Positions 24,850 to 50,394 of a stretch of 64,000 nt of DNA are shown here, in pieces (position 1 is the stretch's first letter; every line of letters begins with the position of its first letter). A model generated the notes under the pieces. That model searched no databases. It was not told the DNA's origin and worked only from the letters and a program-made list of their open reading frames with translations. Source of the stretch: Tolypeutes matacus (lineage: Eukaryota; Chordata; Mammalia; Cingulata; Chlamyphoridae); the NCBI GenBank assembly GCA_026826555.1, contig JAKSZT010054581.1, positions 1,789,052 to 1,853,051 of the forward strand, read 5' to 3'. The translations under genes were made by a program, and so were the position numbers.

Positions 24850-24867
24850 GGAACATGCATTTTTTTT

Positions 24868-25701
24868 AAATGTGGGTAAATATAAATTTTTTTACAATAC
24901 AAACCAATATTTGTAAAATGATATATAAATATATGTGCATATTTGTGCATTTACTTATATAAATGTTATTTTTTATATATATTTTAAAAGATGCTTAGAT
25001 TACATAAATGTTACACTAAAATTACAGGGATTCCCATGTTCCCCACCTCTCACACCTCCCATAACATCCCACATAAACATCTTTCATTAGTGTGGCACAT
25101 CACCTGCAATGGATATACACATCCTGGGGCTTTGCCACTAAGCATGGACCATAGTTCACATTATAGACCACACTCTCTCCCACACAGTTCTGCATGGTGT
25201 ATGCTGATGTAAAATGGCCTATATCTGTCATTGCAATGTCACTCAGGATAATTCCCAAGGCCTGTAAAAGCCCCTGTATTACAACTGCTTTTCCCTTCCT
25301 TGCCCCCAAAGTGTCTATTGGCCACTGTCTCCACCTCACTGTTATAATTTCTTCCATTGCTTGAGTCACAATATGTCTACAACAGAATACCATTAAGTCC
25401 ACTCTAGTCCATAGCTCTTCCCCCAATCCTGAGGAGTCTGGGATGGTGATGTCCACTCCACCTGCAAGTGAGAGTTGGCTTATATCTCATGGATATGGTG
25501 GATGGGATTATCCTACCTGCAGCTACAGACTCTCTCCATTCCCTGGGATGGCTTTTGTCCATCATCTTCTCCTCATCAGGTGCCTTGGGTGAGTCCATTG
25601 AGCTGTAGAGTAGGAGTTGCCGCTGGCACATGGGCAGGCAAGAGGCTACAGTCTTTGGAAGTACACCTACAAACTCCAGCATCACATATAGGTTTGAATA
25701 G
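24868..25701 (-). repeat. L1 3' UTR, distal part
   Basis: This is the reverse complement of about 3590-4440, ending in the AT-rich tail and T-run at its left edge. The join to the proximal part is interrupted by the gammaretrovirus-like provirus. The bases on either side (GGTTTGAATAG and ATAGAAGGG) rejoin into the uninterrupted sequence seen in the sister copies at 3575 and 63180. Confidence 0.85.
25698..25701. repeat. 4-bp target-site duplication of the class I provirus
   Basis: ATAG here and at 33852-33855. Four-base duplications are typical of gammaretroviral integrase. The undisturbed L1 copies carry the motif once. Confidence 0.85.
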
Positions 25702-26089
25702 TGAAGTGTAACACTTCATGCAAATAATGACTCCCAGGACAAAATTTCAATGAAACCTTTATTACCGGCCAGGCACACTCCCTAGTGAGAGTAGCACTTA
25801 ACATCTGATGACTGCAGTTTTTATAGAACTCCTTCCCACATGGCCAATTCTTTTCATGCACGCCAAAAACAGGATTGGTTTAATCATACATATTTCTATA
25901 GCAAAGTAAGCAAGCAATGTTCCAGAAGCTGATGTTTGCCGTTAACGTTCCAGGAGGGAGGAGTGGTTGATCTTTGGGGCATGACGTGCTGATTCTTTTC
26001 AGACCCGGATGGGCACCTGGGTTTCCACCCACAATTGTTAGAGGATTTTTCTACTGGGAATTTCCTGGTACTCTTTTATTTCCTTCTCA
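25702..26089 (-). repeat. 3' LTR of class I provirus
   Basis: 388 bp, TG...CA on both strands. On the minus strand it has a TATA-like TATAAAA at about 25825-25819 and a poly(A) signal AATAAA at about 25762-25757. It lacks the U3 duplication of about 42 bp present in the 5' LTR. Confidence 0.9.
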
Positions 26090-26103
26090 ATCCCCACTCC
26101 TGT
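26090..26103 (-). other. Polypurine tract of class I provirus
   Basis: On the minus strand AGGAGTGGGGATT directly precedes the TG of the 3' LTR, the expected place for plus-strand DNA priming. Confidence 0.7.
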
Positions 26104-26192
26104 AATAGCATTAGTCAAACCATTGACTAATCAGTGGCCAAGGGGTTGTAATGAGTGCTTAATACCATTACCTTCACTGCCTGTATTCTTTT

Positions 26193-27919
26193 TCAGATGT
26201 AGGAATTGAGGTAGCTAATGAAAATAGGGCCTACTAGATATCCCAGTAGGACTAGGACAAGTGGTCCTGCAACAGCGATGATTAAGGTGGTTAGCCATGG
26301 AGACCATGAGAATAGGCTTTCATACCAATTAGCACATTTGGTCCTAAGTTCTTCTCATTCCCTTAGCCTGTTTCTAACTAATGAGAGACTTTCTTTAATT
26401 ACTCCTGAGTGGTTGGCATAGAAATAGCAGGTTTTGCCCAGGGCCACACATAGTTCCCCTTGCTTCAAGAATAATAAATCTAGCCCACGTCTATTTTGTA
26501 GAACCATTTTGGCCAGAGAGGATAAGGACATTTCAAGGTGACTAAATGACTTTTCCAATTCCTTTAGATCTGTGTCAATCTAAGTAGATAAGGTTTTGAA
26601 GTTTTCCTTGCCAGTGACCAGGGCTGCCATTTTTAAGGCTGCTGAAACCCCAATCCCAAGGCCAACCATAATGGGAATGAGAATGGGAACTCGCTTAAAT
26701 TGGCTTATGGTTTTAAAATGTTCATGGCCCCCTTCACCCAAATACCAGTATACCTGTGATGATGTATACTAGGATGCAGACAACTGAGTTTTCTTCAGTT
26801 TTAGATTGTGACAGGGTTTGAGGTGAGAGACAAGGGGTGATTCCTAGGGTACAGGTAACCAGGTGCCACTAGGAGCTTTCCAGTAACAGGATTCCTCAAT
26901 TTCATCAGAGAAAATAACTGATGAACAGTGGGGGCTTAAGAAAGTTGTATTGATTCTGGCTGAGAAGGAGGCAAAACAGGTGCCGTTTCCTTGTAGGTCC
27001 CCCAGAGTTAGAATGGGTTTATGACCCCACTTACACAGCTTTTGGCTTTTGTCTACTGATATTTTTTGAACATACAGTGATGCATTGGGAATAATGCTCC
27101 CATTTGCCCCCATCCCAATATTATAAGGAGGTTGGGGGTTTAGGCAGAGCCAACAATCTTTGGTGGCATTTGGTTGGCTATTGTTTAGGATGGTGAAGAC
27201 AGAGGACAACATGGACAAGGGGCCCCTGGGGGGGTTTTGGTTGGGGAAGGTTAGGTTTTCTGGTTTATTTTTGGGTGGAGTTTCTGGTTCTGAATTAAGG
27301 AAAATGTCCTGTTGGGGCCGACCAGATTAGGTGCAGGGGGTTTAAGAATACCTCGCTGGATAGTGAACTCAATTCCAGGGTCTCGACCAGTTACATATAG
27401 CCTGAGGTTCCATGTTTTACCTCCCTCCCAGGCACCATCAAAGCAATTAGTGATAGGGATGTGGATGAGGTTGCTGAACCGTATAGTTGGGTTCTGGGGA
27501 CTTGCTTCCCTATTGAGGCTGATGGCAGCATCTATGGAGGTCCACAGGGCTGGGGTTTTGCAACCCCATTGCACACAGTGGTACTGTCCCTGAGTATTAC
27601 ATTCTGGGGCCCCGTCTGCAGGGCAGACATAGAACTAAACCTGTGCTAGTCCTTTTTCTAAATTCTGCTTTCCACATCCCCAACTTGTAAAAGAGTTTGT
27701 TAAGGGGCATGAGCTGTTTGGCTTTACCTGATATTCTTCTCCGAGGAGGGAACATAAATCGAAAGACAGGGTAGGATTTTTCTTGGTAGTTTGAGTAGCA
27801 TTTAGAACCTTCCTGTCTTTGATTCTGGTTATGCTCCAGTAATAGGAGGTAAACTGAAAGCTACTACTAGCACAAATGCTAGTAACCAGGAGGGACAGCA
27901 AACTCATTTGCCAGGGCAT
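26193..27919 (-). pseudogene. env: Endogenous gammaretrovirus-like env, broken
   Basis: The envelope glycoprotein mediates receptor binding and membrane fusion in the parental virus. In pieces I see an N-terminal signal peptide (27919-27860, hydrophobic 'LLSLLVTSIC'), surface-subunit fragments (27919-27635, 27574-27251, 27218-26844) with a CWLC motif near 27150 and many N-glycosylation sites. Then come a transmembrane subunit with a hydrophobic fusion-peptide-like stretch near 26690-26640, a segment around 26500-26420 like the immunosuppressive region followed by a cysteine loop (last cysteine replaced by tyrosine), and a membrane anchor at about 26300-26210 before the stop. At least one in-frame stop lies near 26582, with frame changes between the fragments. 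Confidence 0.85.
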
Positions 27920-27953
27920 TGTTATATTCCTCCCTCCTTCCCCATGCTTAGTC

Positions 27954-30900
27954 TTAACTTATCCATGGAATCTTGATTTTTAAAGGGTTTTCTGTCCTGA
28001 TGACTGTCCACTTTCCTGCTTTTGAGTCCTCTGTTCTGGACCTGACAGCTTTTAGCTGGGACGCATGTATCCAGTGCCTTTTCCCTGCGACTTTTACTGT
28101 CATGGGTGTTGTGAGGATCACCACATATGGGCCAGTCCACCATGGCTCCAGTGTTCCAGCCTGGAGCTTCTGAACCCAAAACAGATCTCTGGGCTGTGCC
28201 TGAAATAAAGGAGGGTTAGGACTTGAACAAGAGAGATGGGCTTCTTGGACAGTCTGATTGACCGTTTCTCTGATCTGGTCCAGCACCTTTAGAGTAGAGA
28301 AAAGATATTGGTTGTCATATTCACATATTTTTTCTAACCCTAACTTGGGCAACAGGGGTGGGGTCTGCCAAATAATATATCATAGGGTGTAATGCCCTGC
28401 ACATAGGGGGTACACCTGGCTTTAAGGAGGGCAAAAAGAAAGAGATTCACCCAGTTTTCACCAGACTCCAGAGTCAACTTGGTTAGGGTTTCTTTCAAGG
28501 TGCAGTTCATCCTTTCAACCTGTCCCAAACTTTGGGGCTGAAATGCACAGTACAGTTTCCAATTTATACCCAGGGCTTTAGCCAATTGTTGAGTCACCTG
28601 CGCTATGAAGGCTGGGCCATTATCTGACCCTATTTTAAGAGGAAGCCTGAATCTCAGAATGATTTCTTCAATCAGCTTCTTAACTACTACCGTGGCTGTT
28701 TCGTTTTTAGTTGGGTAGGCTTCCACCCATCCCGAAAATGTATTCACCAGCACCAGGAGATCCGTATTTTTCCAACTTTATCTCGGTAAAGTCTATTTCC
28801 CAGTGTTCCCCTGGTTCCATCCCGTGGAGCCTAGTTCTCACTGGAACTTGGACACCTCCTCTTGGATTTACTTTTGCACAGACTTCGCATTTTGATGTGA
28901 TACTTTTACTGATTTTTAGACAAGCCTGAGAAATAAAAGTCTATTTTTATTAATTCTATTAATTTGGTGCCACCCATATGCATGGTGTCATGCAGTCTTT
29001 TGACCAATTGTCTCCCCACTGCTTCAGTTAGATATGTTCTTCCATCAGGCAGGACTAACCAACCTTCAGAGGAAATTTTAGCTCCTAGACTTTCCCCCTG
29101 CTTCATGTCTTCTGGAGAGTAGCGCATTATCAGGGGCTCCCGGCTGGGGACTGTCAGGAGCATTTGGACAGGGGCGACCGGTAAGAAGGCGGCAGTTCAT
29201 GCGACTTCATCTGCTAGTTGGTTGTCTTCAGCCTACGGGGACTTTCCCTTCTGGTGTCCCTTGCAGTGAACAATGGCTACTTGGTTAGGGAACCAAATGG
29301 CTTCTAATAGCACTAAGATTTCAGTTCCATTTTTAAATTCTTTTCCTCCAGATGTTAGGAATCCTCGCTCTTGGTACAGTGCACTATGTACATGGGGTGT
29401 AGCAATAGCAAAATGACTGTCCATATAAATATTGACAGTTCGGCCCTTTGCCCATCTTAGCTCTTGGGTCAGGGCTATTAGTTTGGCCCATTGGGCGGAG
29501 GTGCCATGGCTTAAGGATTGAGCCCAGATAGTTTTGGGTGGCTCTACTACTGCTGCTCCTGCATAAGAGACTCCTTCTTTAACAAAGATGCTGCCATCTA
29601 CATATAGATTATGGGAAGCCTCCGGGAAAGGCACATCAGTGAGGTCTAGGTTTGGCCCCTTCAGGGTTTCCAGCAAGTGCAAGAAGTCCGTGGGCCACCG
29701 GGGGGTCACTAGAGTCAGGGAGCAGGATGGCTGGATTTAGTGCCTCCATTTTTTAGAATATCATAGAAGGTGTGTTCAACAATAAAACTTGATATTGCAT
29801 GTTTCTGGCATTAGATATCCAGCAGTCCGGGGGACTGTGGAGAAGGGATTCCACCAAATATCAGGCTGTTACACCAGATTTTGGCCAAAAGTTAACTTAG
29901 AGGCTTCCTTGACTGAAAAGGCAGTGGTCACAATGGCTCTTAGGCAGTTGGGCCATCCAGCAGCTACATAGTCCAGCTTTTTTGAGAGGTATGCTACTGG
30001 TCGGTGCCAAGGCCCAATGGACTGGGTTAGGACTCCTTTGCTAACCCCTCAACTTTCATCAACAAATAGATGAAAGGGTGTGGACAGATCAGGAAGCCCG
30101 AGGGCAGGGGCACTTACCAGAGCTGTCTTCAGACCTTCAAAGTCTTCTTGCTGCTCTTTGGTCCACAAGTCATTTCCCTTGCCCGCTGTGGTGGTGTAAA
30201 GGGGCTTAGCAATTTCCGTGAATCCAGAGATCCACAGCCTGCAATATCCCACCGTATAAGAAATTCACATACCTGTCATTTTGAGATCGGTGCTGGGATG
30301 TCCAATACAGCTTGTACCCTGTCGCGTGACAATCGCCGTTCCCCTTTTTCCAAGATGTATCCCAGATATGTTACTGAGTGGGAGCAGAGCTGAGCCTTTT
30401 TGGTGGAAACGTGGTACACCATTTCTGCCAATGCTTTGAGTAGGCTGAGGGTTGCTGCTTTGCAAGAGTCCGAGTCTGGTGCAGCTAGAAGGAGGTCATT
30501 TACATACTGAAGTAGGTAATATCTGGATGCTGCTCCCTGAAGGGGGACAAGTCCCACCCCAGAGCCTCCCCAAACAAGGTGGGGGAGTTTTTTAATCCTT
30601 GGGGAAGTCTGGCCCAGGTTAGTTGCCTGCTTCCCCCAGTCCAAGGGTCCTCAAAAGCAAAGATGCATTGGCTAAACAGTGCCAATGGTATGGAAAAGAA
30701 TGCATCTTTTAGATCCATGACAGAGTAGGTGGTATGCTCTGGAGGGATCTGACTTAGAAGTGTGTAAGGGTTTGGGATGGTGGGGTATATTGTTTCAACC
30801 CTTTTATTAACCTCCCTGAGGTCCTGTACCAGCTGATAGACTGTGCTTCCTGGCTTCTGCACAGGAAGTAAGGGAGGGGGGGTTGTTCCATGGGGACTGG

Positions 30901-31530
30901 CAGGGAATAAATACCTGCGTTGAGTAGAAAGTTTATGTGTTTTTCAATTCCAGTCCTGGCCTTGTGACTAATTGCATACTGCCGTACCCGGATGGTGAGA
31001 GATGTGCTGAGTAGTTGCACCACCATGGGGGCCTGATGCTGAGCTAGCCCAGGGGTGTTTGTTTTGGTCCAAACTCCCAGAACCAGGTGCTGGAACTCTT
31101 GCAGCAATTGATTAGCCATTGGCAGTGTCCTGAGGCCTGTTAGGAGATAATCTTCTGAAATGGGGCAGGTTACTAGGAGAGTCTGGGGCTGAATGCCGAA
31201 CTTTACTTTCATTTCACCATCCCAGAAAGAGATAGTAGCTTTTAAATTTGTAGCAAGTCTCGCCCCAACAAGGGATAGGGACAGTCGGGCATAACAAGGA
31301 AAGAGTGGGTAACGGTCCCGGCTCCAAGATTAATAGTCTGGGAGGTGGTCCAGGGATAAGAGTGTATTTTATCAGTGGCTCCTTGAACCAAAGTATACTC
31401 AGCTGCAAAGGGGCCAGGGTCTGATTTCAGTGTGGAGTATGTAGCCCTCATATCAACCAGGAAGTCAACCGGGCTGCCCCCAACTGTTAGTTTCACCATG
31501 GGTTCCTGGGGGCTTGGCGAGCCCTGGTCA
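27954..31530 (-). pseudogene. pol: Endogenous gammaretrovirus-like pro-pol, broken
   Basis: In order on the minus strand: protease (about 31530-31242), reverse transcriptase (31212-30276), connection (30252-30049), RNase H (29709-29233), integrase zinc-binding part (29163-28906), integrase core (28753-28340) and C-terminal domain (28352-27954, with WTGPY). Frames change repeatedly. Key residues are lost: the protease DTGA box reads DMRA (31454-31443), the RT YVDD box reads YVND (30506-30495), and the RNase H glutamate is replaced by lysine (AQWAKLIAL). In the integrase core the second aspartate (GSDNGPAF) and glutamate (QVERMN) remain. Clearly a non-functional relic. Confidence 0.9.
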
Positions 31531-31564
31531 CACCAGTCTAGCAACTGGGCTGGGGTCTGCCTGG

Positions 31565-33063
31565 CGTTGGGGGCATTCATTTTTCCAGTGCTCCTTTTCT
31601 TTGCAATAAGCACACTGGTCTTTTGTAGTCCTGATCTACCCTGCCATGGCTTTTTCTGGTTCCCGGAGAATCCATGGGAGGAAGACGCCCTAGCGCTTTC
31701 TGTTGCTATTGTGCTTAGCAGGACTTTTGCCACCTTTTTAGATTTTAGAGTATCGGCATCCTCCTTATTGTTATACACTTTCTGTGCCACCTCCATTAGC
31801 TCAGATAATAGCTTCCTTTTAAACCCCTCTAGCCTTTGCAATTTTTTTCATATGTCAGGAGCATACTGCAATACAAATGCTATATTTATAGCCCTAATAT
31901 TTTCAGGTGCCTCAGGTTTATAGGGATGTAATTTCTATAGGCCTCCATTAGACACTCTAAAAAGACAGAAGCTGACTCATTAGGCCCTTGGGTAGTTTCA
32001 CTCACCTTAGAAAGATTTGTTGGCTTTCTGGCAGCAGCTCGAAGGCCACATAAGAGAGTCTGGCAAAACGGCTCGAGAGCCTCCTTACCTTGATCCTGAT
32101 TGTAATTCCATTCTGGTCTGGTTGAGGGGACCACATGTTCCATTCAGATACAGTCAGTAATAGGTTGGCCGTCTCGGCCCAAGATGGTTTTGACAGCCTC
32201 CCTCTGGATACGATCTCTCTCCTCCGAGGTGAATAAGACCTGTAATAATTGCTGACAGTTATCCCAGGTGGGGTTATGGGTGAAGAAGATAGTTTCTAGG
32301 AAAGAAATCAAGTCTTGTGGTTTTTCCAAGAATGGTGGATTTTGATTTTTTCAGTTATACATGTCTGTAGATGAAATGGGGGCATATACCATGAACAGGA
32401 GACCATCGTCACCCAGACCTGGACCTGCTTGGTGGAGGGGCAGTAAGGGGGCTGGGTCAGGCAGGATGCGGGAAGCTGCAGATGCCTGATACTGGGTACC
32501 CCTTCACCTATGGGGGGGGGCTGATTAGAGAGGTATCAGTGGGTGTGGAGAGCGGAGGGTAGAGACTGTTTTTGGGTGATTGGGTTAGAGGGGGAGGAGA
32601 AGGAGTGGATGGAGAGGGAGCAGACAGAGGAAGTGAGGGGTAGATAGGTAAGGGGGGTTCATCAGGCATGTCCTGTAGGACTGAAGGACTGGGGTCCTTA
32701 ACAGGAACCTTTAGTGGGAGTTGAGGTTCCAGCTGGGCCGAGCAACCCTTGCCCTGCAAGACAAAATTTTAATTTGTTGTGAGTGTCTGTAAGAAGATCT
32801 ATCAACACATCAATGTAAGGAACCTGGTCCGGGTGGCCAGGTTTGCCATAGATGACTCTCTGGGTGTTGTAGATTGTTGGGAGGTCCATAGTGCCTTCAG
32901 ACGGCCAGCCCACACCGAAGGTGGGCCACTCTAATTTACAGAGGGTTCAGAGGGTCCCCAGGTAGACCTTGGCTCCTTATCCAGCCACTGCCTTCTTGAA
33001 TTCCTGAAAGTTTTTTAGAAAACAGGCAAAGGGTGTGGTAGGACAAGAGGAGGATTGACCCAT
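31565..33063 (-). pseudogene. gag: Endogenous gammaretrovirus-like gag, broken
   Basis: Gag forms the virus core. The start MGQSSS at 33063 has the MG of a myristoylation signal. Matrix continues at 32913-32770 in another frame (GHPDQVPYI). A proline-rich p12-like part lies at 32759-32508 with a YPSL motif resembling ALIX-binding late domains. Capsid follows at 32329-32144 (PTWDNCQQLLQ) and 32143-31886 with a major homology region (QGPNESASVFLE). The nucleocapsid has one CCHC knuckle at 31614-31573 in which the glycine before histidine is glutamate. Several frame changes and stops break it. Confidence 0.88.
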
Positions 33064-33207
33064 AGTGATGAACAAGAGAAGCACGGAACAAAAACTGAGC
33101 ATAAATGTTACAGAGAGACAGCTGGCTACACAAACAGACACAAAAACCTTGAGCTTATTCTGAGGCCCTGAGTGACGTCTCACCCAGTGGCTGGGCTGTG
33201 GGAGCAA
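33064..33207 (-). other. In-frame hydrophobic leader upstream of gag (glycoGag-like?)
   Basis: The gag matrix frame stays open for 48 codons upstream of the MGQ start, from an ATG at 33207. Residues about 19-48 are strongly hydrophobic (KVFVSVCVASCLSVTF and a following leucine-rich part), ending directly at the gag methionine. Some gammaretroviruses make a glycosylated Gag from an upstream in-frame start with a membrane segment. The similarity is positional only; I do not claim homology. Confidence 0.35.
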
Positions 33208-33395
33208 CGTTGCATCCAGCAGCCCAACGGACTCCCCTGGATCCAGACTTACTGAAGCAGAACAAAACTGGTGGTTTCTTAGGTTGAATAATTAATCTCC
33301 CCTGGAATTTCTGGCCAGACTGAGGAACATCTGGGGCTGAGGAACATCTCTCAGAGGCCTTCCCCTGGAAGCCTCAGTGTGGCTGGCCCCAGTAA

Positions 33396-33413
33396 ATCTC
33401 ACTGGGGCCTCCA
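33396..33413 (-). other. Primer-binding site, tRNA-Gln-like
   Basis: On the minus strand, two bases after the 5' LTR, the sequence reads TGGAGGCCCCAGTGAGAT. It fits the complement of the 3' end of tRNA-Gln with about three mismatches. The TT spacer between LTR and site is the usual gammaretroviral arrangement. Confidence 0.7.
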
Positions 33414-33415
33414 AA

Positions 33416-33851
33416 TGAAGCATAGCACTTCATGCAAATAATGACTCCCAGGAGAAAATTTCAATGAAAACTTTATTACCAGCCAGGGTGTACTCCTTAG
33501 TGAGAGTAGCGCTTAACATCCAGTGACTGTGGTTTTTATAGAACTCCTTCCTGAGTGGCCAATTCTTTTTGTGCACACCAAAAGCAAGATTGATTTAATC
33601 ATTATACATATTTCTATAGCAATCTAAAGCAGGATTCTTTTAATCATACATATTTCTATAGCAAAGCAAGCAAGCAATGTTCCAGAAGCTGATGTTTGCC
33701 ATTAGCGTTCCAGCAGGGAGGGGGAGTGGTTGATCTTTGGACATGATGTACTAATTCTTTTCAGACATGGATGGGCACCTGAATTTCCACCTACAATTGT
33801 TAGAGGATTTTTCTACTGGGAATTTTCTGTTACTGTTTTATTTCCTTCTCA
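33416..33851 (-). repeat. 5' LTR of class I provirus
   Basis: 436 bp, TG...CA. It is longer than the 3' LTR because a block (ATACATATTTCTATAGCAA and neighbours) is present twice, at about 33604-33622 and 33645-33663. The flanking duplication ATAG is at 33852-33855. Confidence 0.9.
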
Positions 33852-35556
33852 ATAGAAGGGACTGATGGACCATGTGCAGGGAGAACTTATTTGAGTCCAA
33901 CTCTGTCATCCAATTATAAGGCATCAATTTCTGGGGCTATCCCCCCTTATATAGGAGCTGGGTGTCTCCAGAGCCCTCAGGACCCCCTCTGTGTAGGATG
34001 ATATTCACTTTGGTGTTCTATGAGATCCTACTAAGGTGTGCATAAGCATTACCTCTGGGATGACTTCCCAGCTCTCTTTGAAGTCTCTTAACCACATGAA
34101 CTCATTTGTCTTTACCTTTTCCCCCTTTTATTCAAGGCCTTTTCCCCGTCATATTGCCAGTTGGCACTTGGTATTAATCCCTCATTGCTAGGGAGGCTCA
34201 TCCCCAAGAGTCATGTCCACATTGGGGGAAAGGTAATGTATTCATATGCTGAGTTTGGCTTCAAGTGAGTCCACATTTTAGCAACAAGGAGGCTCACAGT
34301 AGGCAACCCTTAGGCACCCCATAACAGTAAGCTAAGTTTCAATTACAAGAGTAAAGACACATAAGGCTGGTCATCAATAACAAGAACCCATCAGTGGATT
34401 ATCCTCCTTAGCCAGGCACTGCACCTGCACTCAGGGGACTATTGCTGCTCCTTTGGAGAATGTGGCAGAGCTCACCAGGCTGGGAATTCAGTATTCCCTC
34501 AATTATTGAGTGATTGTCTACCCACAGTGGCCATGACCCATCCCTTGATCATTTGAACAATTTTATATATCTTTCATGTATACGCAGATGAACTTCCTCC
34601 CATGAATCCCCCATCCCAGACACCCCCTACCAATGATCCTCAGCAGCCCCCATAGTAACTCTTCTGTGATCTAAACCTTCCTTGATGATGAAGCCCATAT
34701 AATAACCAAATACAATTAATAGGAAAATGAAATAATATTGATAAGCTTAAATGCAAGAGATAAAATAAATGGAAACTCAGAAAGAAAAACAAAAAACTAA
34801 AACTAAAATATAATTAATGGATTTGGACATTCAAAAAATGGGAAAAAAAAAAACTACTGCATTATTGGATGTCCAGTGTGTTCTGGGGCATCTTCCCCCT
34901 CTCATTCCCCAGTGTCTCCCAAATTTTTATTTAATTTTCAAAGTTTTAAGTCACATCAAAGTCACACACAGAATACTAGAGATTTTCATATACCCAACCT
35001 CCTTCCCCTTTTCTCACCCCATATTAAAACCTTTTTTTTTTTTCATGGATAGTGGCATTGTTATAACTGTTATACAGACAGTGAAACATAGCTACTAAAT
35101 ATTGTCAATGGTTTACAGTATAGTTTACAATTTAGATTGTACAGTTTAATAATTTTTGATGATATTTACCATGTCCTGTGTCCATTACTGTAAGGTTATG
35201 AAAAATATTTCCCATGACCACTAAATACCTCGTTTGATCTTTTCTGTTCCTTCCTCCCCATCCCCCTAGGACATATGATACTTCCCTGTCTTGACTCATT
35301 GGATGACAAGATTCATAGTTACATGCCCTGGGTATTCTAACCTTCCCCTCCTAATCTAACACCTGTCAACCCTGCACCACCAAGCCCAGTATTTTCACTA
35401 CCCACCTGTCCTATCCTTCAATATGCAACTATAATCTATCACTTTACCATAGATTATGTCCATATGGTGATGGCTCACAACCTACTCTTCTCTCTTTCTA
35501 ACTTGTTAACCTATCTTTTAGACTGTGGTTCTCAGAGACTGCTCACTTTCCACAAT
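33852..35556 (-). repeat. L1 3' UTR, proximal part
   Basis: It directly follows the ORF2 stop codon at 35557 on the minus strand and matches the plus-strand copies at 1857-3590 and 62160-63180 along its length. This is the evidence that the repeated unit of the window is an L1 3' UTR. Together with 24868-25701 it gives about 2.5 kb, several times the usual mammalian L1 3' UTR. The G-rich tract lies at 34627-34599. Confidence 0.85.
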
Positions 35557-39387: not shown

Positions 39388-39393
39388 CCTTAC
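39388..39393. repeat. 6-bp target-site duplication of the ERV-K-like provirus
   Basis: CCTTAC here and at 47129-47134. Six-base duplications are typical of betaretroviral/class II integrase. Confidence 0.9.
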
Positions 39394-39806: not shown

Positions 39807-39820
39807 TTTCACCCTTTTTT
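39807..39820 (-). other. Polypurine tract of ERV-K-like provirus
   Basis: On the minus strand AAAAAAGGGTGAAA abuts the 3' LTR. Confidence 0.8.
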
Positions 39821-40073
39821 ATTAATTAAAGCTCATAGGAACCATTATATAAGCTCATACAAGGTGACCTCCTGTCACACTTGTCTTCTTCCATAGGCTC
39901 TTGTGACTGTGCCTGTCTTAGGTTGTTCTCCTCTGAGAATCTTACCCATCATTGACTACCAGTCAAGCTTTTGAGCTCTTACATGGAAGGTAATTTCATT
40001 AATATTTATGCTTCTTCAGGTTCCTTAATGAATATTTTTTGTGCAGATATTTAGTATTAAGATCAAGGGGTTA

Positions 40074-41604
40074 TTAGTAGAATCTTTCTACTAAGTAATG
40101 TAAAATTAGTTTTTCATGGCCATGTTTCTTAACATAAATGCATTTATCGGGTCTAATTACTCTAACCTTAACAATACAAACAGTTAAAACACATATAACA
40201 ATAATTCCAAATCCAATCCAAAATGATATTTGAACTGTTTTTTGTTTCCACCAATGAAATGCCTGCACCAGTGGTTTCTTTCAATCTGTTTGATACATGC
40301 TCAATGCCTTCTTTTGCAATTCTAAAATAATTATAGAAACATTATGCTTATATCCAATCAAGTGATTTTTCACTTCCTCCCAATCATGTTTCTATTATTA
40401 TAAGCCAAAAAAGTAATACAAATAGAACTTTCATTCCAATCATATTCAAGAGCTCTTAACAAGTTTAAATTATAAATTTGATTACCCAAATGTATAATAG
40501 TTGTTTCAAGATCATTCATAAGATTATTCAGTTCCATATCAATGTGAGACTGGCTATGCCACGTATCTCACTTGCATTTTTATGCCAGTCCTTAACATCT
40601 TGTTGATTCTGGACTCCTTGATGCAGGGCTGTGCCAGTGAGACTGCTGCAGCAGTTATGATGTGAATCAGTCCCAAAATTCCTGCTATTAAAAGTCCAAT
40701 CAGTCTTTTAGTTCTTTTTAAATAATGGTCAAGGAAACGCCACAGTAACTGGGATTCTTGAGACTGCTGCCAATGTCTGGTCATCTGAACCGGTAACCAT
40801 AATCCTTTTCTTCTTCTTGCTATAAAAAAGAGTTTGATTTTCCTGCAAATATGAATTCTTAAAACATGTAAATAAGGAGCAATTGAAGCAATTAATATTC
40901 CTTTCACCAAAAATTACTGTTCCAATGATATAACTATAGGATCTCGTACACATATTGTAAGAAATTGAGTTGATTTTCTTTTTCAAATAGTAATATCAGT
41001 TTTGCTGCCTTGCCTTACAAAAATTGGACCTGTTCCCAAAAATAATTTCCACAAATAACTTTGAGTTTTGTTAAGTTTAGTGTCCCATGGTTGTGGGATA
41101 TATCTTCCTTGATTTTTCCAAATTATTGAGCTGTTAGTAAATGCTGTATTACCAAAATTCCAGAAATAAGGATTACTGTCATTAGTGATTATGGTTGAAT
41201 TATTAATGAACCAAGATATGGTTGTTTTTAATAGGTTTCGGCATCCCTATAAGGGCCCGATCCTTTACAATTCCATAGGAATCATTAAACAACACAACCT
41301 CTGTAAGCCCATGACAAATATGCCATTTGTCATTAAGTAGTCTGTTGTGAGATTAATTAAGATAAATTGGGTAAGACTCATCACTCTAAGTCAACAGCTC
41401 TAGAAGAGGTGAGTTGGTTATGTATGCCCAATAAGTGTAATTATGGTGTGGTATCTTACCTTGACCTAATACTTTACCTATAATTAATCCAATGTAAAAC
41501 CACCATGTCCATAGTTTAAGTCTTGTCAGCATCTTCAACTCTAGGCTTGATTTTTCTGGAGGGGATCCACTGCTCTTCTCCTGTTTCTGTAATGATAAGA
41601 GCAA
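40074..41604 (-). pseudogene. env: ERV-K-like env, shortened and broken
   Basis: Envelope glycoprotein relic. It overlaps the end of pol by about 90 bp, as in betaretroviruses. 41604-41386 includes a hydrophobic signal-like part (LKLWTWWFYIGLIIG) and the start of the surface subunit. After a stop, degenerate surface sequence follows to about 40870, then a basic stretch and a hydrophobic fusion-peptide-like region (LIGLLIAGILGLIHIITAAA, near 40700-40640). 40268-40074 encodes the membrane anchor (FWIGFGIIVICVLTVCIV) and a short tail. The span from signal to fusion region is only about 280 codons, so part of the surface subunit appears deleted. Several stops and frame changes are present. Confidence 0.85.
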
Positions 41605-44095
41605 AACCTCGGCCCCAAAATTTTACCTCTCCTTTTTCCCATTTATTGGTTGTTTCATTTTTCCAGTATATTGGTTGTCCACATTTTTCATTTTCATTCC
41701 TTTTTTTATTAACCTTCCAATGTCTTTCTGCTGCTGTGGTATTAGAAATTTGTTGTCTATTAAGAAAATTTAAGGTAAGCAATGCTTTAGACAGTTTGTC
41801 TTTAGCAGATTCTCCTCCATCTCCCCCTTTTTGTTTTTGCAACATTAATTTTAATAAGTGATTACTTTTTTCTACTATCACTTGTCCCTGAGTGTTATAT
41901 GGAATTCCTGTAACATGTTTAATATTCCAGTCACTGCAAAATTTTTTGAAAGATTGACTAAGATAGGCAGGCCCATTATCAGTTTTTAGCTGTGCTGGCA
42001 GGCCCATTACAGCAAAACAATGTAATAAATGAGAATGTACGTGTGAGGCCTTTTCACCAGCTTGAGCAGTTGCCCAAATAAAATTAGAATATGTATCCAC
42101 TGTCACATGCACATACTGAAGGCGGCCAAAAGAGGGCACATGCGTGACATCCATTTGCCAAATTTCATTAGGATGTTCTCCACAGGGATTAGTTCCTGGA
42201 GAAAAAGTGGGGGCATTTATGGGCCCACAAGTAGGACATTGTCTAACAATCCTCTTACTTTCTTTTACTGTTAAGTGGGGATATTTATGACGTAAGTCAG
42301 AAGCATTAGTATGTGTAAGTTTATGATAATCAGCAGCACATTCTGTATGAGCAATAAGTTTATCTACTAAATCATTTTGTGAAGCCATAGGGCCAGGAAG
42401 TTGAGAATGGGAATGAATATGAGTAATATAGATTGGATTAGATCGTTCATGAACAGCCTTTTGTAATTGTAGGAAAAGAACTTCTAATTCAGAAGCTGAA
42501 GTTATTTGAGCTGTTTCTATATGACAAACAACATGACAAACATAAGCAGAATCAGACACAATATTTAAAGGCTCAGAAACATCAGCTAGCAATTGAATAA
42601 CAGCCATAAGTTCTACCTTTTGGGCAGATAAATAAGGTGTTTTCCAAGATTTTGTAGTTGGGCCTAAATAGCCTGCATTTCCATTACTGCTGCCATCAGT
42701 GTAGTAAGTTGGAGCAGCAGAGAGTGGTTGTTGTTTCACAACCTTAGGAAGAATCCATGAAGTACGTTTTAAAAACTGTAAAAATTTTGAATTTGGAAAG
42801 TGATTGTCAATTGTTCCAATAAAATCTGCTAAGGCCACTTGCCAAGAGTTACTGAACTGCCAGAGCTGAGAAAGCTCCTGCTTTGTAAGTTCTAATATGA
42901 TTTTATCAGGATCTCTAGCCATAAGCTGTCTCAGGCGAATACGGCCTTTTGATATTATTGCTGAGATTTTTTCAGGATAAGTATTAAGATTTTTGTATCT
43001 TTGTTGGGTAGGAATATCCATTCTATTATGCCCTCCTCTTGCGAAAGTATCCCAGTAGGGGAATGGCAAGATGGAAATATTAAAAGAGAAATTGGAAGAT
43101 TAACATTTATCCTTGTTAGTTGGCTGTTTTGCACTCTTTTTTCCAACCATTTTAACTCCTCTTTTGCTTCTGGGCTTAAAATGCGAGGGCTATTTAAGTC
43201 AGGGTCTCCTGTTAGGGTATTGAAAAGATTAGTTAAAGCATAAGTTGGAATTCCTAAAGTAGGCCGTACCCAATTAATATCACCCAGTAATTTCTGAAAA
43301 TCATTTAAAGTACGTAAATTATCAGTTCGAAACTGGACCTTTTGTGGAGTTATAATATTTCTATTAATAGTATGACCTAAATATTGAAAAGGAAGCTGTT
43401 TTTGAAATTTTTCTTCTGCTATTTGCAACCCATGTTGAGGAAGAATTTCTTTAGCCAGCTGAAATAATTGTTTCAGCTCTGAAGATTGCTCAGTGTCAAA
43501 AAGAATATCATCCATATAATGAATAATCATAGCCTTAGGAAATTGTTTTCGTAAAATTTGTAATGTAATGTGAACAAAGGATTGACATAATTTAGGACTG
43601 TTCATCATTCCCTGAGGTAAAACTTTCCACTGATATCGTTCAGTAGGAGCTGAATGATTAATAGAAGGAATAGTAAACGCAAATTTTTCTCTATCATTTG
43701 GATTAAGAGGAATATTAAAGAAACAATCTTTTAAATCAATAATAATAATATGCCAATTTTGTGGGATCATAGCTGGGGATGGCAAACCAGGCTGTAAAGA
43801 TCCCATAGGTTGAATAACTTTGTTAATTTCACGCAAATCTGTTAACATGCGCCATTTGCCAGATTTCTTTTTAATTACAAAAACTGGAGAATTCCACAGA
43901 CTAGTAGAGGGCTCAATATGCCCTGCCATTAACTGCTCCTGCACTAATTCTTTCAGGGCTTCCAATTTTTCTTTCGGAAGGGGCCACTGTTCTACCCAGA
44001 TAGGTTTGTTTGTCAGCCATTTTAAAGGCAATGCGAAGCCCTTTGTAACAGTAGCCCCTACTCTAAATTTGAATATCCTAGGCCAGGGTAGTCTC
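41516..44095 (-). pseudogene. pol: ERV-K-like pol (RT, RNase H, integrase), one frame break
   Basis: Replication polyprotein. Frame one (about 44095-42955) holds reverse transcriptase with LPQGMMNSPKLCQ and an intact YMDD at 43518-43507. Frame two (43069-41516, 517 codons) holds RNase H (TDGSS, KVELMAV, SDSAYV and a late D) and a complete-looking integrase: HH-CC zinc part ending CPTC, core aspartates in WQMDVTHV and KTDNGPAY, the glutamate in VIVEKSNH, and a C-terminal domain ending in a lysine-rich tail. The frames meet near 43060-43085, so a small indel separates RT from RNase H. No stop lies inside either long frame. pol is the best preserved gene of the window. Confidence 0.93.
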
Positions 44096-44885
44096 CAATA
44101 AGTCGCATTTCAGGTCGGGAAGGGGGAGCATATTGCATGTGAGTAATAAGATGTTTAGCTGTATCAGAAACATGAGGAATATTCAAATAAGCTCCCCATT
44201 GGTATAATAAGTCTCTTCCCCATAAATTAAGTCCTACATCTGCAACATAAGGTTGCAGAGCGGCCTCTTGTCCTTCTGGACCTTCTACCTTAAATATCTG
44301 AGTACTCTGGTAAACATCCGTCATTGTGCCAACGCCAGTGAAAACTGTAGGCACCTTCTGCAAAGTCTAAGCTTGTGGCCAATATCGTTTAGCAATAATA
44401 GAAACATCAGCCCCAGTATCCACCAATCCTAAAAATATCTTTCTGTTTATTTTTATGGTAATTTCAGGCCTTTCATCTCCAATTGCTGTTTGCCAAAAAA
44501 CTTTATGCCCAGTGGAACCAAATTCTTCTGCACATTTTAAAGGAGGTTTACGATACGGTAACAAAAGAAGTTGAGCTATGCTATCTCCTGATTCAATCTG
44601 ATAGGGAGTTAAAGTTTGTACCAATAAACAAATTTCTCCATCAAAATTGGAGTTAATGATCCCGGTTTGCACCAAAACACCTTGGGTCATAAGACTGCTA
44701 AGGCCAATAATGAAACCTACATTGTTTTCTGGGATAGGCCCTTTAATTCCTGTTCTTATTTTTTGTATACCAAGTGAAGGCGTAATGAACTTGGTTTCAG
44801 CTGAGGGAAGATCGACAGCTGCACTGCCTTTAGTAACCGCCTTAAGCTCTGTTACAGGCTGGAGTGAGCTGCTCCGTTGCTGACT
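44058..44885 (-). pseudogene. pro: ERV-K-like dUTPase-protease (dut-pro), one stop
   Basis: Betaretroviruses carry a dUTPase domain fused upstream of protease, read after a frameshift from gag. Here dUTPase motifs run from about 44850 (GSAAVDLPSAE) through GIINSNFDGEI to the glycine-poor end near 44550. The protease follows with an intact LVDTGADVS active-site box near 44430-44400, and its second half (GRDLLYQWG) at about 44220. An in-frame TAG at 44369-44367 splits the protease. The reading frame differs from gag and from pol, as expected. Confidence 0.9.
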
Positions 44886-46581
44886 GGGTAGGTTTGAGCA
44901 AGGCCGGGAAATGTGCTCATATTGTTTGTCTGAGGGCCTTGAGCGAGGCCCGCATGGAAGTTTCCCGACTTATTAATGAGAGTGCCATTTTTATGATATT
45001 TAGAATGGCATTCCTTGGCCCAGTGCAACCCTTTCTGACATATAGGACATACGCGAGTCGGTATTGATCTATTATTGCCGCTAGGTGGCGCTCTTACACC
45101 AGTTTTGGCTTGGCAATCTTTTTTCATATGACCTGGTTTCCCACATTTAAAGCAATTTAAATTATTAATCATAGGACTATGTCCCTTTATAGCAGCTGCA
45201 AGAAGGGTCATGTTATATGTATTAGACCCAATGTCTTGGCATGCCCTTATATAATCCTGTAAAGTACCTCCATTTGCCTTTATTGGATGCAAAGCCTTTT
45301 TACACTCACTATTAGCATTATCAAAAGACAACATCAGAATAAGCATCTCTTTAAGGTCAGGCTGAGTTACTGTCTTGTTGACTACATCTGCCAGCCTAGC
45401 TACAAATTCAATGTAAGGTTCAGTATTTCCTTGAACAATTTTTGAAAATGATTGTACAGCCTGTCCAGGAGTAGAGATTCGTCTCCAGGCAGCTAGGCAG
45501 CACAATCGCACTTGTACAATGGCAATATCATCATATTGAGCTTGGCAAGGAACTCCAGCCCATTGACCTATTCCTAATATTTATTCAGCAGTAATAGGCA
45601 CTGGTGGATTTTGCTGTTGATTTCGTTGTGCTACAATATTAGCTTCATCAGCCCACCAAGTTTTAAATTGTAAAAATTCTGCTGGACTAAGAACAGCTTG
45701 AGCTAACAAATCCCAGTCCCAGGGTATTAATCTGTCTGCTTGTGCCATTCCTTGCACCAATCCTTGAGTATAAGGAGAATTTACACCATATTGAGTGCAT
45801 GCTTGTTTTAATTCTTTGATAGTTTTAAAAGGAATAGGAGCATGCTCATACTGTACACCCCCTTGGGGATTGTCAGCATCTGCTGGAATTTGAGTTACTG
45901 TTACTGGAAAAGTAGAAAGGAGTTGCATAGCCTCTGAATCTCCTTCTCTACTTCCCTGTGTTATACTTTTCATAATTGAGGAGGATGGTGCTGGCACAGA
46001 AACAGAAACTTTAGGAGGGTCATCAAATGTTGTAAAAAATGGATCAGCAGATGCCTTAGGTGGCGCAGATGCTGGCTCAAAAGACAACAAATCATAATTT
46101 GGAGCAGACGGCATAGTGACCACTGAGAAAGCTCCATAAGCTTCCTCTTTCCTTTTCTTCTTTCTATTAGACCTGAGTCTATCTGTTCCTGCCTGCTCAC
46201 TAACCCCCTCAAGTACATTTTCATCAAAATCACCATTAGCTTGTTCTGCCATCGGTCCAGCAATAGCAGTATCCTGTTCACAATCTTCATCCTCATCTGA
46301 TTGCAAAGGTTCAAGAGCAACAGAAATAAGACTACACAAAGACCATACATGAAGGGGAATTATTTCTCCCCCTTGATGAGCTCTTTTTAAAGCTTTCATC
46401 ACTAACTTCCATTGTTCCAGGTTTAAAATATCCCACCCTTGCGGCTGAAACCAATAACATGTTTCTGTACAAGAGAAAAAAGTTCCTCAAAAGCCGAGGA
46501 TTTAATAGTTACACCGGTGCATTTTAATAAACTTTTTAACACTCTAGAGAACTCTTCAAAGTTCGACTGCTGATTACCCAT
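44852..46581 (-). pseudogene. gag: ERV-K-like gag, frame break plus stop
   Basis: Core structural polyprotein. It starts MGNQQSNFEEF at 46581 with an N-terminal glycine suited to myristoylation. The matrix frame ends at a stop at 46423, while the continuing frame runs 46402-45581, so a small indel lies near 46470-46440. An in-frame TAA at 45583-45581 splits capsid. 45511-44852 holds the capsid end with the major homology region (IVQGNTEPYIEFVARL), then two zinc knuckles (CFKCGKPGHMKKDC and CPICQKGLHWAKEC; the first is canonical) and the natural end at 44852, overlapping dut-pro. The region 46300-45960 is acidic and proline-rich, between matrix and capsid. Confidence 0.92.
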
Positions 46582-46695
46582 TACCCTGATGATTCCAAGG
46601 ATGAAACTTACCTTTTCTGTTTCTTTTTCTTTTAAAACCGCTCTCAGGAGCTCCTTGGTCTGCGCACTGACTGAAAGAAAAGTTTCGTTTTCAGT

Positions 46696-46713
46696 GCCCC
46701 ACGCTGGGCGCCA
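46696..46713 (-). other. Primer-binding site, tRNA-Lys type
   Basis: On the minus strand TGGCGCCCAGCGTGGGGC, two bases after the LTR. It fits the tRNA-Lys(1,2) primer site used by D-type betaretroviruses with one mismatch, supporting an ERV-K-type assignment. Confidence 0.9.
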
Positions 46714-46715
46714 TA

Positions 46716-47128
46716 TGTTGCCGGTCAGGCTCTGGGTCCGTGAAAACGGTGCCGCGGATGAGAAAGAAAGAATAAGACAAAGAAAAACTGGGATCAGGGG
46801 ACTCTCCATCAGATATGTAGAGAAGAGCCCTGCCACCTCATAAGGTGTGGCTTTTATTTTGGCTTTAGAACAAAGAAAATATGTATGTACATATACAAAG
46901 TCTATAGATACTTGACAGTTTACATTTTACTAAAATGAGCAAGTCTTAAAAGTTAATGGCTCAGTTCCTCTTTTTCTTCCTGAAATTCACAGACATTGTA
47001 AATCTTACAAGCTCAAGATGTTTCCCCACCCAGCTCCTATTAGCATGAGACCTGAGGGCTTGTTTCCTACATTCCAGGGTGACCTTCTATTCTTTCAGTT
47101 GCCATGGCCTTTAATTGAAACTCCATCA
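46716..47128 (-). repeat. 5' LTR of ERV-K-like provirus
   Basis: 413 bp, TG...CA intact. It is nearly identical to 39394-39806. The differing positions by eye are one each at about 46808, 46818 and 46902, two adjacent near 47050, and one at 47127. Target duplication CCTTAC at 47129-47134. Confidence 0.97.
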
Positions 47129-47134
47129 CCTTAC

Positions 47135-47559
47135 TATAGTTTTGCATTTAAAGTCTATTTTGTCTGATGTTAGAATAGCTACTCCTGCCCTTTTTTTTTT
47201 GGCTATTGTTAGCTTGTAAAATTGTTTTCCAGCCATTCACTTTCAGCCTCTTTGAATCCCTGGTTGGAAGGAGGGTTTCTTGTACACAGCATATAGATGG
47301 ACCATATTTCCTTATCCATTCTGCCAATCTGTGTCTCTTGAGTGATGAATTTAATCCATTAACATTCAGAGTTATTACTCACAATTAATTTCTTACTTCA
47401 GTCATATTTTCTTTGGGTTAATGTATGTCATATGTTGTTTTGTTTCTGTTTTTTGTCTTTTTAGTTGTTTTTAAACTCTCCTCCAACTCTCTCTCCCTTG
47501 TTTTTTCCTTTCAACTTGTAGAACTTCCTTTAGTATTTCTTGAAGTGCCAGTTTCTTAT
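47135..47559 (-). pseudogene. L1 ORF2, N-terminal endonuclease part
   Basis: Degenerate minus-strand reading of the APE-type endonuclease start: 'NVNGLNS' near 47375, 'RLAEWIRK' near 47325, and a 'KKRAGVAIL' segment near 47200. It then continues across the provirus at 39387. Stops and a frame change are present. Confidence 0.75.
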
Positions 47560-47571
47560 TGACATACTCTC

Positions 47572-48442
47572 TTAATTTTTGTTTATCTGTGAATATTTTG
47601 AACTCTCCCTCATTTTTGAATGCCAGTTTGGTTGGATAGAGAATTCATGGCAGGAAGTTTTTTCTTTTAGTACTTTGACTATGTTATACCACTGTATTCT
47701 TGCCTCCATGGTTTCAGATGAGTAATCAGCACTTAATCTTATTGTGCTTCCTTTGTATGTGATGGTTCTCTTTTCTCTTGCTGCATTGAGTATTTCTTTG
47801 TCTTGAGCATTGGATATTTTGACAAGTATATGTCTTGGAGTTGGCCTTGTAGGATTTATACTATTTGGTGTATGCTGTGCTTCCTGGATCTGCACATCCA
47901 TCTCTCTCAATAGGGTTGGGAAGTTTTCAGCCATTATTTCCTTCAACCCTCCTCCTGTTCCCTTTTCTTTCTCTTCTCCTTCTGCGATGTCCATAATGCA
48001 CATGTTTGTGCATTTTGTGTTGTCAGTTAAATCCCTGAGTCCCTGTTGGATTTTTTCTATCTTTTTGTCTATCTGTTCTACTATATGTTTGATTTCAGAT
48101 GTATTGTCTTCCACATCACTAATTCTTTCTTCTGCCTTTTCAAATCTGCTATAATGTGAATCCAGTGTCTTTTTGATTTCTTGGATTGTGCCACTGATCC
48201 CCATCATATCCATTATCTTTTTTTGTATGTTTACAATTTCTTTAGTATGTTCTCCCAGAGATTATTTCCTTAATCTCTTCCTTCACTTCATTAAGTTTGT
48301 CCATGATATTTGTTTGGAAAGCTATGATTAGTTGTTCAATGTTCTGCATCTCTTCATGGTTTTTAGTTTGTTCATTGGACTGGTACATGTTTTCCTGTTT
48401 CTCAGTGTGGTTTTTGATTTTTTGTTGCCCTCTGGCCATCAT
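47572..48442 (-). pseudogene. L1 ORF1 (RNA-binding chaperone), frame-broken
   Basis: ORF1p coats L1 RNA as trimers. 48442-48242 encodes the N-terminal part (lysine/glutamine-rich). 48213-47572 encodes 213 residues: a coiled coil (residues about 10-70, ISDVEDNTSEIKHIVEQIDK), an RRM-like region, then RPTPRHILVKISNAQDKEI and IRLSADYSSETMEARIQW of the C-terminal domain. The two parts are in different frames, so one indel lies near 48230. Confidence 0.9.
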
Positions 48443-50276
48443 TTTATCTTGATGGATTTATTCAGTTGATTAGCTTCTCTCTCTGCTCTAGAGTTTTATT
48501 TAGCTGGTGATTCTGTGTGTGTGCTAAATTTTCTCTTTGAAAAATTTTCTTCTTATTTTATCTCCTTGCTTCTTTTCTCTGTTACCTTGAAGGCAAAAGA
48601 TTAGTGCCAGTGGAATCAAAAGATGTGAGAAAGGAAGAAGGATAATTGTAATATTAATAAAATTTAGAAGAGAGGCCAAATAAGACTTAGCGAAATGTAT
48701 ATTTAACTTATGTAGGCAGTATAGAGTAATAGGAAAAAAAGTGGAGTACCTACAATGGCCTGGGAAACCAAATAGAGGAATATATATATATATAATTATT
48801 TAGAAGGTTAGAATGATGAGGAGGGAATGGAAGAGTAAAGAAAGGGCTCAAAGGAAAAGTTAATATTAATTTTAAAAAGAAGAAAACAAAGTAGATAAAA
48901 TAGAAATTGACACCCTTAAGTTGTGGGCTAATGAAAAACGTGGTGTACAAGGACCACAACAGAAAGCATATGTCAGAAAGAGAAAGGAAATATAAGAGAT
49001 AGCTTGGGATCCAAAATCAATATAGATAGAGAATTGGAGATCACTGAAGAAGAAGCACAACAAAGAAGAGACAAGCTAGCAGCACTTAATTCAAAAAAAA
49101 AAAATGAAAGAAAAAATAAAGGGGGAGGAAAGTGTAAAGAAAATCAAGGGACAACAAATAAACAGAGAAAAACCAAACAACCACACAAGCAAGCAGTCAA
49201 ATAAAGCTAAGGAGGAACAGGGTTCCTTCTAGGATCCTTGTGGGATCTCTCAGCCTTCTTGTATTTATCAATCAATTTCCCTGCAGGGTTCTATCTGCAG
49301 GTTTTGAGGCATATTTTAGCTATTAAACTTAATTAAAAAGAATTTATTTCTCATTTTTAAAAGTGACTGTCTTCTTCTTCTTCTTTTTTTTTCTTGGCAA
49401 AATACGGGACCAAAAATAAGTCCTCTTGTAGATCACCCTCTTTCACCAAAGGGACCCTAACTAGCCTCATGGAAACTAATCAAGCACTTCCCACTTCTTG
49501 GCATCCCCAGGGGAGCTGAAGCTCTGATGCTTGTCCATGCAGAATGATAAAATTGGCTGACTCTGTCTCCTCTGGAGCCAAGCCTCAGTGTCACTGGGCT
49601 GCTGGGTAAATCAGGCTTCTTCAGTAGATTTGCCTCTCCCCTCAGCCTGGCACTGCTTGAAGCCAGCTTATCTGCTTCCCAAAGCTATCAGGGGGTCCAG
49701 GCAGCCAAATCCACAGAAGAGAAACCTCTCTCCACCTTCTGTCAGAACCCTCTCTCTCTCAGAGAATGCTCCCTCTCACAAGCTTGGCAGGGTTTGGAGC
49801 TTATCCCTGGGCAGCTAGGTAAATCAACTACTTCAGCAGATTTGCCCTTCCCTTCTGCTTGGTGTTGATTCAATCCAGCTATTTTGTTTGCCCAAGCTGC
49901 AAGGTGTTCCAGGCAGCAAAATCCACAGAAAAGAAACCCCTCTCATCCCTTTGCCTGAACCCTCCCACTCTCAGAGAATGCTCCTTCTCACTGGGCCCTC
50001 TCACCAGTTTGTTGGGCCTGAGTCCCAGCTCAAACCAGCCTTTTTCCCTGTGGGTGGGGTTCAGCTGTCTGTGTTAACCACCACAGGTAGGCTTAAAACT
50101 CATGAATCTCTACCGATCAGTCCACACCATTGATCTGCCTGCTGATAGATGTCCCAAGCTTCTCATTCCATATGCCCACAGCACAGACCCCTGGGCAGAA
50201 CCCTGTCCAAAATCTGCCATCCTCAGAGATGAGGATGAATGCCCTCCTAAACCGATGCCATCTTGCCTCCCCCCTC
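48443..50276 (-). promoter_or_regulatory. L1 5' UTR with repeated units and YY1-like site
   Basis: 1.8 kb between ORF1 and the element's 5' end. The part near the 5' end (49580-50276) is GC-richer and contains two related units about 213 bp apart (compare 49601-49780 and 49814-50000). CAAGATGGC at 50265-50257, about 12 bases from the 5' end, has the sequence and position of the YY1 site that sets the start in human L1. The ORF-proximal part is A/T-rich with purine runs. Confidence 0.7.
50257..50265 (-). promoter_or_regulatory. YY1-like motif at L1 5' end
   Basis: CAAGATGGC on the minus strand, preceded by GGGGGGAGG at the presumed first transcribed bases. Confidence 0.65.
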
Positions 50277-50394
50277 GGAACATGTATTCTTGAGTTTTAT
50301 TTCCAAGGGCCATACACCATGGTATGGACATTAAGATAGACATATAGACCAGTGGAACCAAATTGTTCAGAAACAGATCCTCTTTAGAAGATCC

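What the first reader, a model, noticed from the sequence alone, without database searches (positions are those of the whole stretch)
24850..50288. A 25-kb block is one L1 exploded by nested retroviral insertions
GGAACATGCATT (24850-24861, left of a T-run) and GGAACATGTATT (50277-50288, right of a G-run and YY1-like site) look like the two copies of an L1 target-site duplication, one mismatch apart. Between them all L1 parts occur once, in order and on one strand, if two proviruses (6-bp and 4-bp duplications), an ERVL-like LTR and L1 tails are removed. The implied element is about 8.7 kb. An annotator looking locally would list many separate L1 fragments.
Basis: partly seen in the sequence, partly recalled or inferred. 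Interest (0 to 1): 0.85.

Follow-up and report, generated by a model that had tools for sequence, protein, structure and literature searches.

The report
One old L1 split by insertions
A 25-kb stretch of a mammalian genome is a single old jumping gene (LINE-1) split into pieces by two retroviruses, a retroviral end-repeat and a younger LINE-1 tail that landed in it later; the reading is correct, but such nests are common in mammalian genomes.

Summary
The finding holds, with corrections. The window lies in an unnamed 3.6-Gb genome. Five of 14 fetched L1 copies from it reach both ends (~9.3-9.5 kb) and match the window pieces in one order on one strand. The flanks, joined, are contiguous in 35 of 38 other listed matches; in 8 of 8 read, the duplicated word or a 1-2-base variant stands once: paralogous empty sites.

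Inserts: a gammaretrovirus-like provirus (4-bp duplication), a 508-bp LTR (5-bp), a 407-bp L1 tail and a betaretrovirus-like provirus (6-bp; LTRs 407/413 identical).

Corrections: ORF2 lacks 608-621 bp at 39259|39260; the LTR starts at 36526, not 36581; the tail is one young L1 end. Pieces diverge from siblings about as siblings do from each other, the 5' UTR slightly more.

Four inserts in 8.6 kb of LINE is below the published human densities (1.66 per kb on chromosome 2, 0.81 on Y; PMC2672092). Real, but ordinary.

The parts
24850..24861 (.). 3'-side copy of the L1 target-site duplication (GGAACATGCATT), left of the T-run
   Evidence: single copy in paralogous empty sites
24862..25701 (-). 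host L1, distal 3' UTR and A-tail (read on minus strand)
25702..33851 (-). provirus A, gammaretrovirus-like; 4-bp duplication ATAG at 25698-25701 and 33852-33855; genes in decayed fragments
25702..26089 (-). provirus A, 3' LTR (inner end approximate)
33416..33851 (-). provirus A, 5' LTR
33856..35560 (-). host L1, proximal 3' UTR (ORF2 end judged by recalled motif)
35561..36525 (-). host L1, ORF2 C-terminal part
36526..37033 (.). LTR of 508 bp without internal part, 5-bp duplication GATGG at 36521-36525 and 37034-37038; 95-98% to 33 other listed places
37039..37589 (-). host L1, ORF2 (37197-37592 minus frame matches ORF2p residues 767-898)
37590..37996 (-). 5'-truncated tail of a younger L1, 96-98% to 39 other listed places; no clear duplication found
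37997..39259 (-). host L1, ORF2 reverse transcriptase (ORF2p residues 340-696 in 38186-39307)
39259..39260 (.). breakpoint of a 608-621 bp deletion in ORF2 relative to 5 of 5 siblings measured
39260..39393 (-). host L1, ORF2 remnant before the deletion (endonuclease part, by recall)
39394..47128 (-). provirus B, betaretrovirus-like; 6-bp duplication CCTTAC at 39388-39393 and 47129-47134
39394..39806 (-). provirus B, 3' LTR
46716..47128 (-). provirus B, 5' LTR
47135..48300 (-). host L1, ORF2 start (by recalled motif) and ORF1 (47575-48261 matches L1 ORF1p)
48301..50276 (-). host L1, 5' UTR with a tandem duplication (49616-49779 / 49828-49991)
50277..50288 (.). 5'-side copy of the L1 target-site duplication (GGAACATGTATT)

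Best explanation
One full-length L1 retrotransposon, of a lineage with many relatives in this genome, inserted in reverse orientation into an older repeated unit and made a 12-bp (possibly 15-bp) target-site duplication. Later it was interrupted by four independent insertions: provirus A early, and more recently an LTR, a 5'-truncated young L1 tail and provirus B. It also lost about 615 bp of ORF2 by an internal deletion. Shown: one element, its ends, each insert, and the contiguity of the target in paralogues. Inferred: target-primed reverse transcription as the mechanism, neutral accumulation, and the relative times of the inserts.
For: Five of 14 fetched siblings (L012, L013, L015, L016, L022) match the pieces in order from end to end. 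Homology ends are shared by 35 of 39 and 38 of 39 other listed copies. Contiguous empty target: 35 of 38 listed matches, 8 of 8 read. Duplications of 4, 5 and 6 bp flank the three retroviral inserts, and the sibling positions there overlap by only 4-7 bases. Divergence is similar by piece. LTR pair distances are K = 0.120 for A and 0.0147 for B.
Against: The 5' UTR piece is a little more diverged from siblings (12.9-13.4%) than siblings from each other (9.2-12.8%). The LTR distance of provirus A (0.105-0.120) is no smaller than the mean L1 distances to siblings (about 0.07-0.15), so the dates alone do not show that A is younger; the nesting does. Nine of the 14 fetched copies match only in part. 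Only 2 of 5 sibling copies gave a duplication of 12 bp or more by a simple scan. The young L1 tail has no clear duplication. No orthologous empty site was testable.
Confidence: 0.97

Rival explanations
1. Several separate L1 insertions lie side by side by chance and only look like one element.
For: The surroundings are L1-rich: other L1 fragments lie at 23774-24425 and 51050-52940.
Against: Pieces are complementary and meet at single L1 positions in five siblings, apart from overlaps of 4-7 bases at the retroviral inserts. The flanking L1 fragments do overlap this L1 in ORF2, but are only about 67-72% alike to these five siblings, as separate L1s would be. The empty site fits one insertion.
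Confidence: 0.01
2. The LTR at 36526-37033 came with the L1, as part of an LTR-carrying L1 lineage, and is not a later insertion.
For: Five other listed places match L1 + LTR + L1 across both junctions and one across one junction.
Against: In the five of these six that were read, insertion points and duplications differ from the window: GATGG here, GTGTG in L037, GTATT in L036, GGAGG/GGGGG in L038/L040, within about 15 bp; L039 has no L1 on its left side. The window LTR is 97-98% like four LTR copies at other sites but 92-95% like those in L036-L040, and five siblings lack it.
Confidence: 0.04
3. The block is an assembly artefact (misjoined repeats).
For: Repeat-rich sequence; the window has two 400-base runs of N, at 1457-1856 and 17183-17582.
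Against: There are no N inside 24850-50288. Three of four inserts are explained to the base by insertion duplications, and the L1 ends by a duplication seen once in paralogues.
Confidence: 0.02

Closest known systems
Nested transposable-element clusters of mammalian genomes (interruption analysis, PMC2517846; REANNOTATE, PMC2672092)
   Same: An old LINE split by younger LTR elements and LINEs; fragments that belong together; order readable from nesting. PMC2517846 says mammalian genomes contain many nested insertions (passages seen).
   Different: Nothing in kind; this is one example in an unnamed 3.6-Gb genome.
Xenarthran L1 lineages (XenaLINEs, PMC1764860)
   Same: Passages seen describe armadillo L1 clades, one of them inactive for longer with 92-95% identity to other copies; the pieces here differ from siblings by 7-13%.
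   Different: The species of this window was not identified by any tool, and the lineage was not placed on that tree.
Gammaretrovirus-like and betaretrovirus-like endogenous retroviruses
   Same: A: TLV_coat, MLVIN_C, Gag_MA, Gag_p30 and a 4-bp duplication. B: Gag_p10, Gag_p24, dUTPase, integrase and a 6-bp duplication. That 4 bp and 6 bp fit these genera is recalled.
   Different: No tree was made; both are described from separate fragments.

Membership tests
LINE-1 (L1) | ORF1p with L1 RNA-binding domain | tested here: met
   Transposase_22 4.4e-19; L1 ORF1p 2.2e-33
LINE-1 (L1) | ORF2p with reverse transcriptase | tested here: met
   human L1 ORF2p residues 340-696 at 2.9e-141 and 767-898 at 6.3e-54
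LINE-1 (L1) | target-site duplication and A-rich 3' end | tested here: met
LINE-1 (L1) | intact ORFs (needed for an active copy, not for membership) | tested here: not met
   ORF2 broken by stops, inserts and a 608-621 bp deletion
One L1 insertion (not several) | pieces colinear and non-overlapping with full-length copies | tested here: met
   5 of 14 fetched copies reach both ends and are colinear; the other 9 match in part
One L1 insertion (not several) | flanks contiguous in an empty site | tested here: met
   paralogous sites: 35 of 38 listed matches cross the junction; 8 of 8 read have one copy of the word or a close variant
One L1 insertion (not several) | orthologous empty site in a related species | not testable with these tools
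   no relatives of this genome are held
Gammaretrovirus-like ERV (provirus A) | MLV-type integrase C-terminal and TLV-type env domains, 4-bp duplication | tested here: met
Betaretrovirus-like ERV (provirus B) | Gag p10/p24, dUTPase with protease, 6-bp duplication | tested here: met
ERVL-type LTR (36526-37033) | 5-bp duplication and TG...CA ends | tested here: met
   compatible with class III by recall, but not specific to it
ERVL-type LTR (36526-37033) | homology to a named ERVL LTR | not tested
   no repeat library at hand

The most novel reading that the evidence does not exclude
One LTR family may prefer a short stretch of L1 ORF2: at least three, perhaps four, separate insertions of the same LTR family, all in the same orientation, fall within about 15 bp of the same L1 position (window, L036, L037, and L038/L040 in a more diverged L1). 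That could be an integration hot spot inside L1. The query selects for the same orientation and place, and no expected number was computed.
Probability: 0.12. Interest if true: 0.4.

Novelty: new member of a known kind. Interest (0 to 1): 0.15.

Why it matters
It shows that a careful reading of raw sequence can join L1 fragments over 25 kb, and it gives a relative chronology by nesting (the L1 before each of its four inserts). Provirus B, with LTRs 98.5% identical, may be young enough that individuals or related species lack it. Beyond that it is an ordinary nested cluster.

Tried and rejected
Shared LTR insertion: at first suggested that other L1 copies carry the same LTR at the same site; reading five of the six candidates (L036-L040) showed other insertion points (the sixth, on C4220, was not read). 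L039 has no L1 on its left side and was not resolved. L038 and L040 may share one event; not resolved. The GTATT duplication of L036 is inferred, since the start of its LTR is shortened.

The 407-bp tail looked like two pieces at first and like a discrete element with fixed ends. The three relatives compared (L046-L048) share 760-1230 bp with each other, beyond the 5' end of the tail, so it is a 5'-truncated L1.

Deletion at 39259|39260: in a search with 39100-39393, 39 of 39 other listed matches stop at 39257-39259, so it looks private. A query centred on the joint (39200-39330) did not complete, so a shared deletion in a copy that was not listed is not excluded. The genome search scores and lists about 40 candidates only, so all counts from it are of listed matches.

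Dating by LTR distance used a neutral rate that I recalled (2.2e-9 to 4.5e-9 per site per year), not one from a call. Two other open frames of the window (22587-23045 and 3691-4101) gave no Pfam match.
Full report
What was checked. The duplicated 12-base words are at 24850-24861 and 50277-50288. The window lies in a 3,625,713,217-base genome held without a name, so the L1 could be compared with its own relatives. The genome search lists about 40 scored candidates of thousands, so counts below are of listed matches.

Ends. A search with 24850-25600 listed 39 other places; 35 of 39 matches begin at window 24856-24864 and 4 begin further in. A search with 49400-50400 listed 39 other places; 38 of 39 stop at 50264-50278 and one runs to 50299. 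The L1 therefore ends at the two words. On the minus strand it begins at about 50276 and ends with the A-run next to 24862.

One element. Of 14 regions fetched, five (L012, L013, L015, L016, L022) carry both ends and match the window in one order: 24860-25701, 33851-36526, 37033-37589, 37997-39259, 47130-50271. L012 does so with some gaps and a 190-bp repeat of its own, of a kind that the window carries at 50531-50720, outside the L1. The other nine match in part. A finer search placed 39260-39393. At the proviruses and the LTR the sibling positions overlap by only 4-7 bases, as insertion duplications would give. Mean divergence of the window from siblings is 7.2, 10.6, 10.2, 8.8, 9.8, 10.8, 8.9 and 13.2% over eight pieces; siblings differ from each other by 6.9, 9.2, 9.2, 8.0, 9.0, 10.1, 9.1 and 11.0% (8 of the 14 fetched copies given, 4 to 8 used per piece, those covering over 90% of it). 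The 5' UTR piece (12.9-13.4%) lies slightly outside the sibling range (9.2-12.8%).

Empty site. The host flanks joined with one copy of the word were searched in the same genome. Of 40 rows, 2 are the window itself. Of the other 38, 35 run across the junction (to query 374-394; the junction is at 362) and 3 stop before it. Eight of eight loci read (L050, L052-L058) have the word once, without a gap; two have it letter for letter as in the left copy and six with one or two changes from the nearer copy. The L1 therefore landed in an older repeated unit that elsewhere is uninterrupted. Six of the eight have C at the base where the two copies differ, so the left copy probably keeps the older letter. 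In the eight, homology to the unit stops 26-28 bases right of the L1, near 50315.

Protein anatomy. Minus-strand frames match human L1 ORF2p residues 340-696 (38186-39307) and 767-898 (37197-37592), and ORF1p (47575-48261). ORF2 seems to end near 35560 (by recalled resemblance of the C-terminal motif), which leaves a 3' UTR of about 2.5 kb. ORF2 is broken.

Between 39259 and 39260 the window lacks 608-621 bases present in five of five siblings measured. In a search with 39100-39393, 39 of 39 other listed matches stop at 39257-39259, so the deletion is probably private. The L1 pieces sum to 8600 of 25415 bases, against about 9.3 kb in four siblings and 9.5 kb in L012 with its extra repeat.

Inserts. 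Provirus A (25702-33851; duplication ATAG) has fragments of Gag_MA, Gag_p30, protease, RT, RNase H, integrase with MLVIN_C, and TLV_coat env. Its LTRs are identical at 345 of 387 aligned positions. Provirus B (39394-47128; duplication CCTTAC) has Gag_p10, Gag_p24, zinc knuckles, dUTPase, protease, RT, RNase H and integrase, and a weak GP41-like env trace below the curated cut-off. Its LTRs are identical at 407 of 413. With a recalled rate of 2.2e-9 to 4.5e-9 per site per year this gives about 13-27 My for A and 1.6-3.3 My for B. The L1 distances to siblings (mean K about 0.07-0.15 by piece) are of the same size as the LTR distance of A, so A may have come early; only the nesting shows the order. 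Both proviruses lie on the same strand as the L1. The primer-binding stretches look by recall like threonine (A, uncertain) and lysine (B) tRNA types. The LTR is 36526-37033: 33 other listed places match it alone, at 95-98%. The tail 37590-37996 matches 39 other listed places at 96-98%.

The LTR question. One search also listed five places that match L1, LTR and L1 across both joints, and one across one joint. Reading five of these six showed other insertion points and duplications (GTGTG, GTATT, GGAGG/GGGGG; one without L1 on the left), so they are not the window's insertion; they lie within about 15 bp of it. Whether this exceeds chance was not computed; many L1 and LTR copies exist and the query selects for such cases.

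Meaning. Published work says mammalian genomes contain many nested insertions (PMC2517846, passages) and offers a tool that rejoins fragments (PMC2672092, abstract, the section on human nesting). Table 3 there gives 1.66 insertions per kb of LINE on human chromosome 2 and 0.81 on Y; here 4 in 8.6 kb is about 0.47 per kb, with the caveat that small inserts were not sought in the same way and the species differs. RepeatMasker output carries such links too (PMC2517846), while PMC2672092 (abstract) says this information is limited, so the claim that an annotator would list separate fragments is partly right.

Noticed in passing
24500-24861 and 50289-50315: The target unit of the L1 is repeated in clusters: 21 of the 38 other listed matches lie on six contigs (C4898 five, C1597 four, C4235 four, C4690 three, C584 three, C1646 two), as in a locally amplified family. 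Its nature was not worked out.
   Followed up: partly
36521-37038: Several separate insertions of one LTR family lie within about 15 bp of the same L1 ORF2 position in other L1 copies.
   Followed up: partly
50316-50530: Homology to the target unit breaks about 27 bases right of the L1, so another insertion or rearrangement probably lies there.
   Followed up: no
50504-50732: A repeat of about 190-210 bp, 89-94% alike in six of the loci held, probably a SINE.
   Followed up: no
23621-23797: A piece similar to the end of the 36526-37033 LTR lies beside an older L1 fragment left of the block.
   Followed up: no
33856-35560 and 24862-25701: The L1 lineage seems to have an unusually long 3' UTR of about 2.5 kb, shared by siblings; 'unusually' is by recall of other mammalian L1s.
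   Followed up: partly
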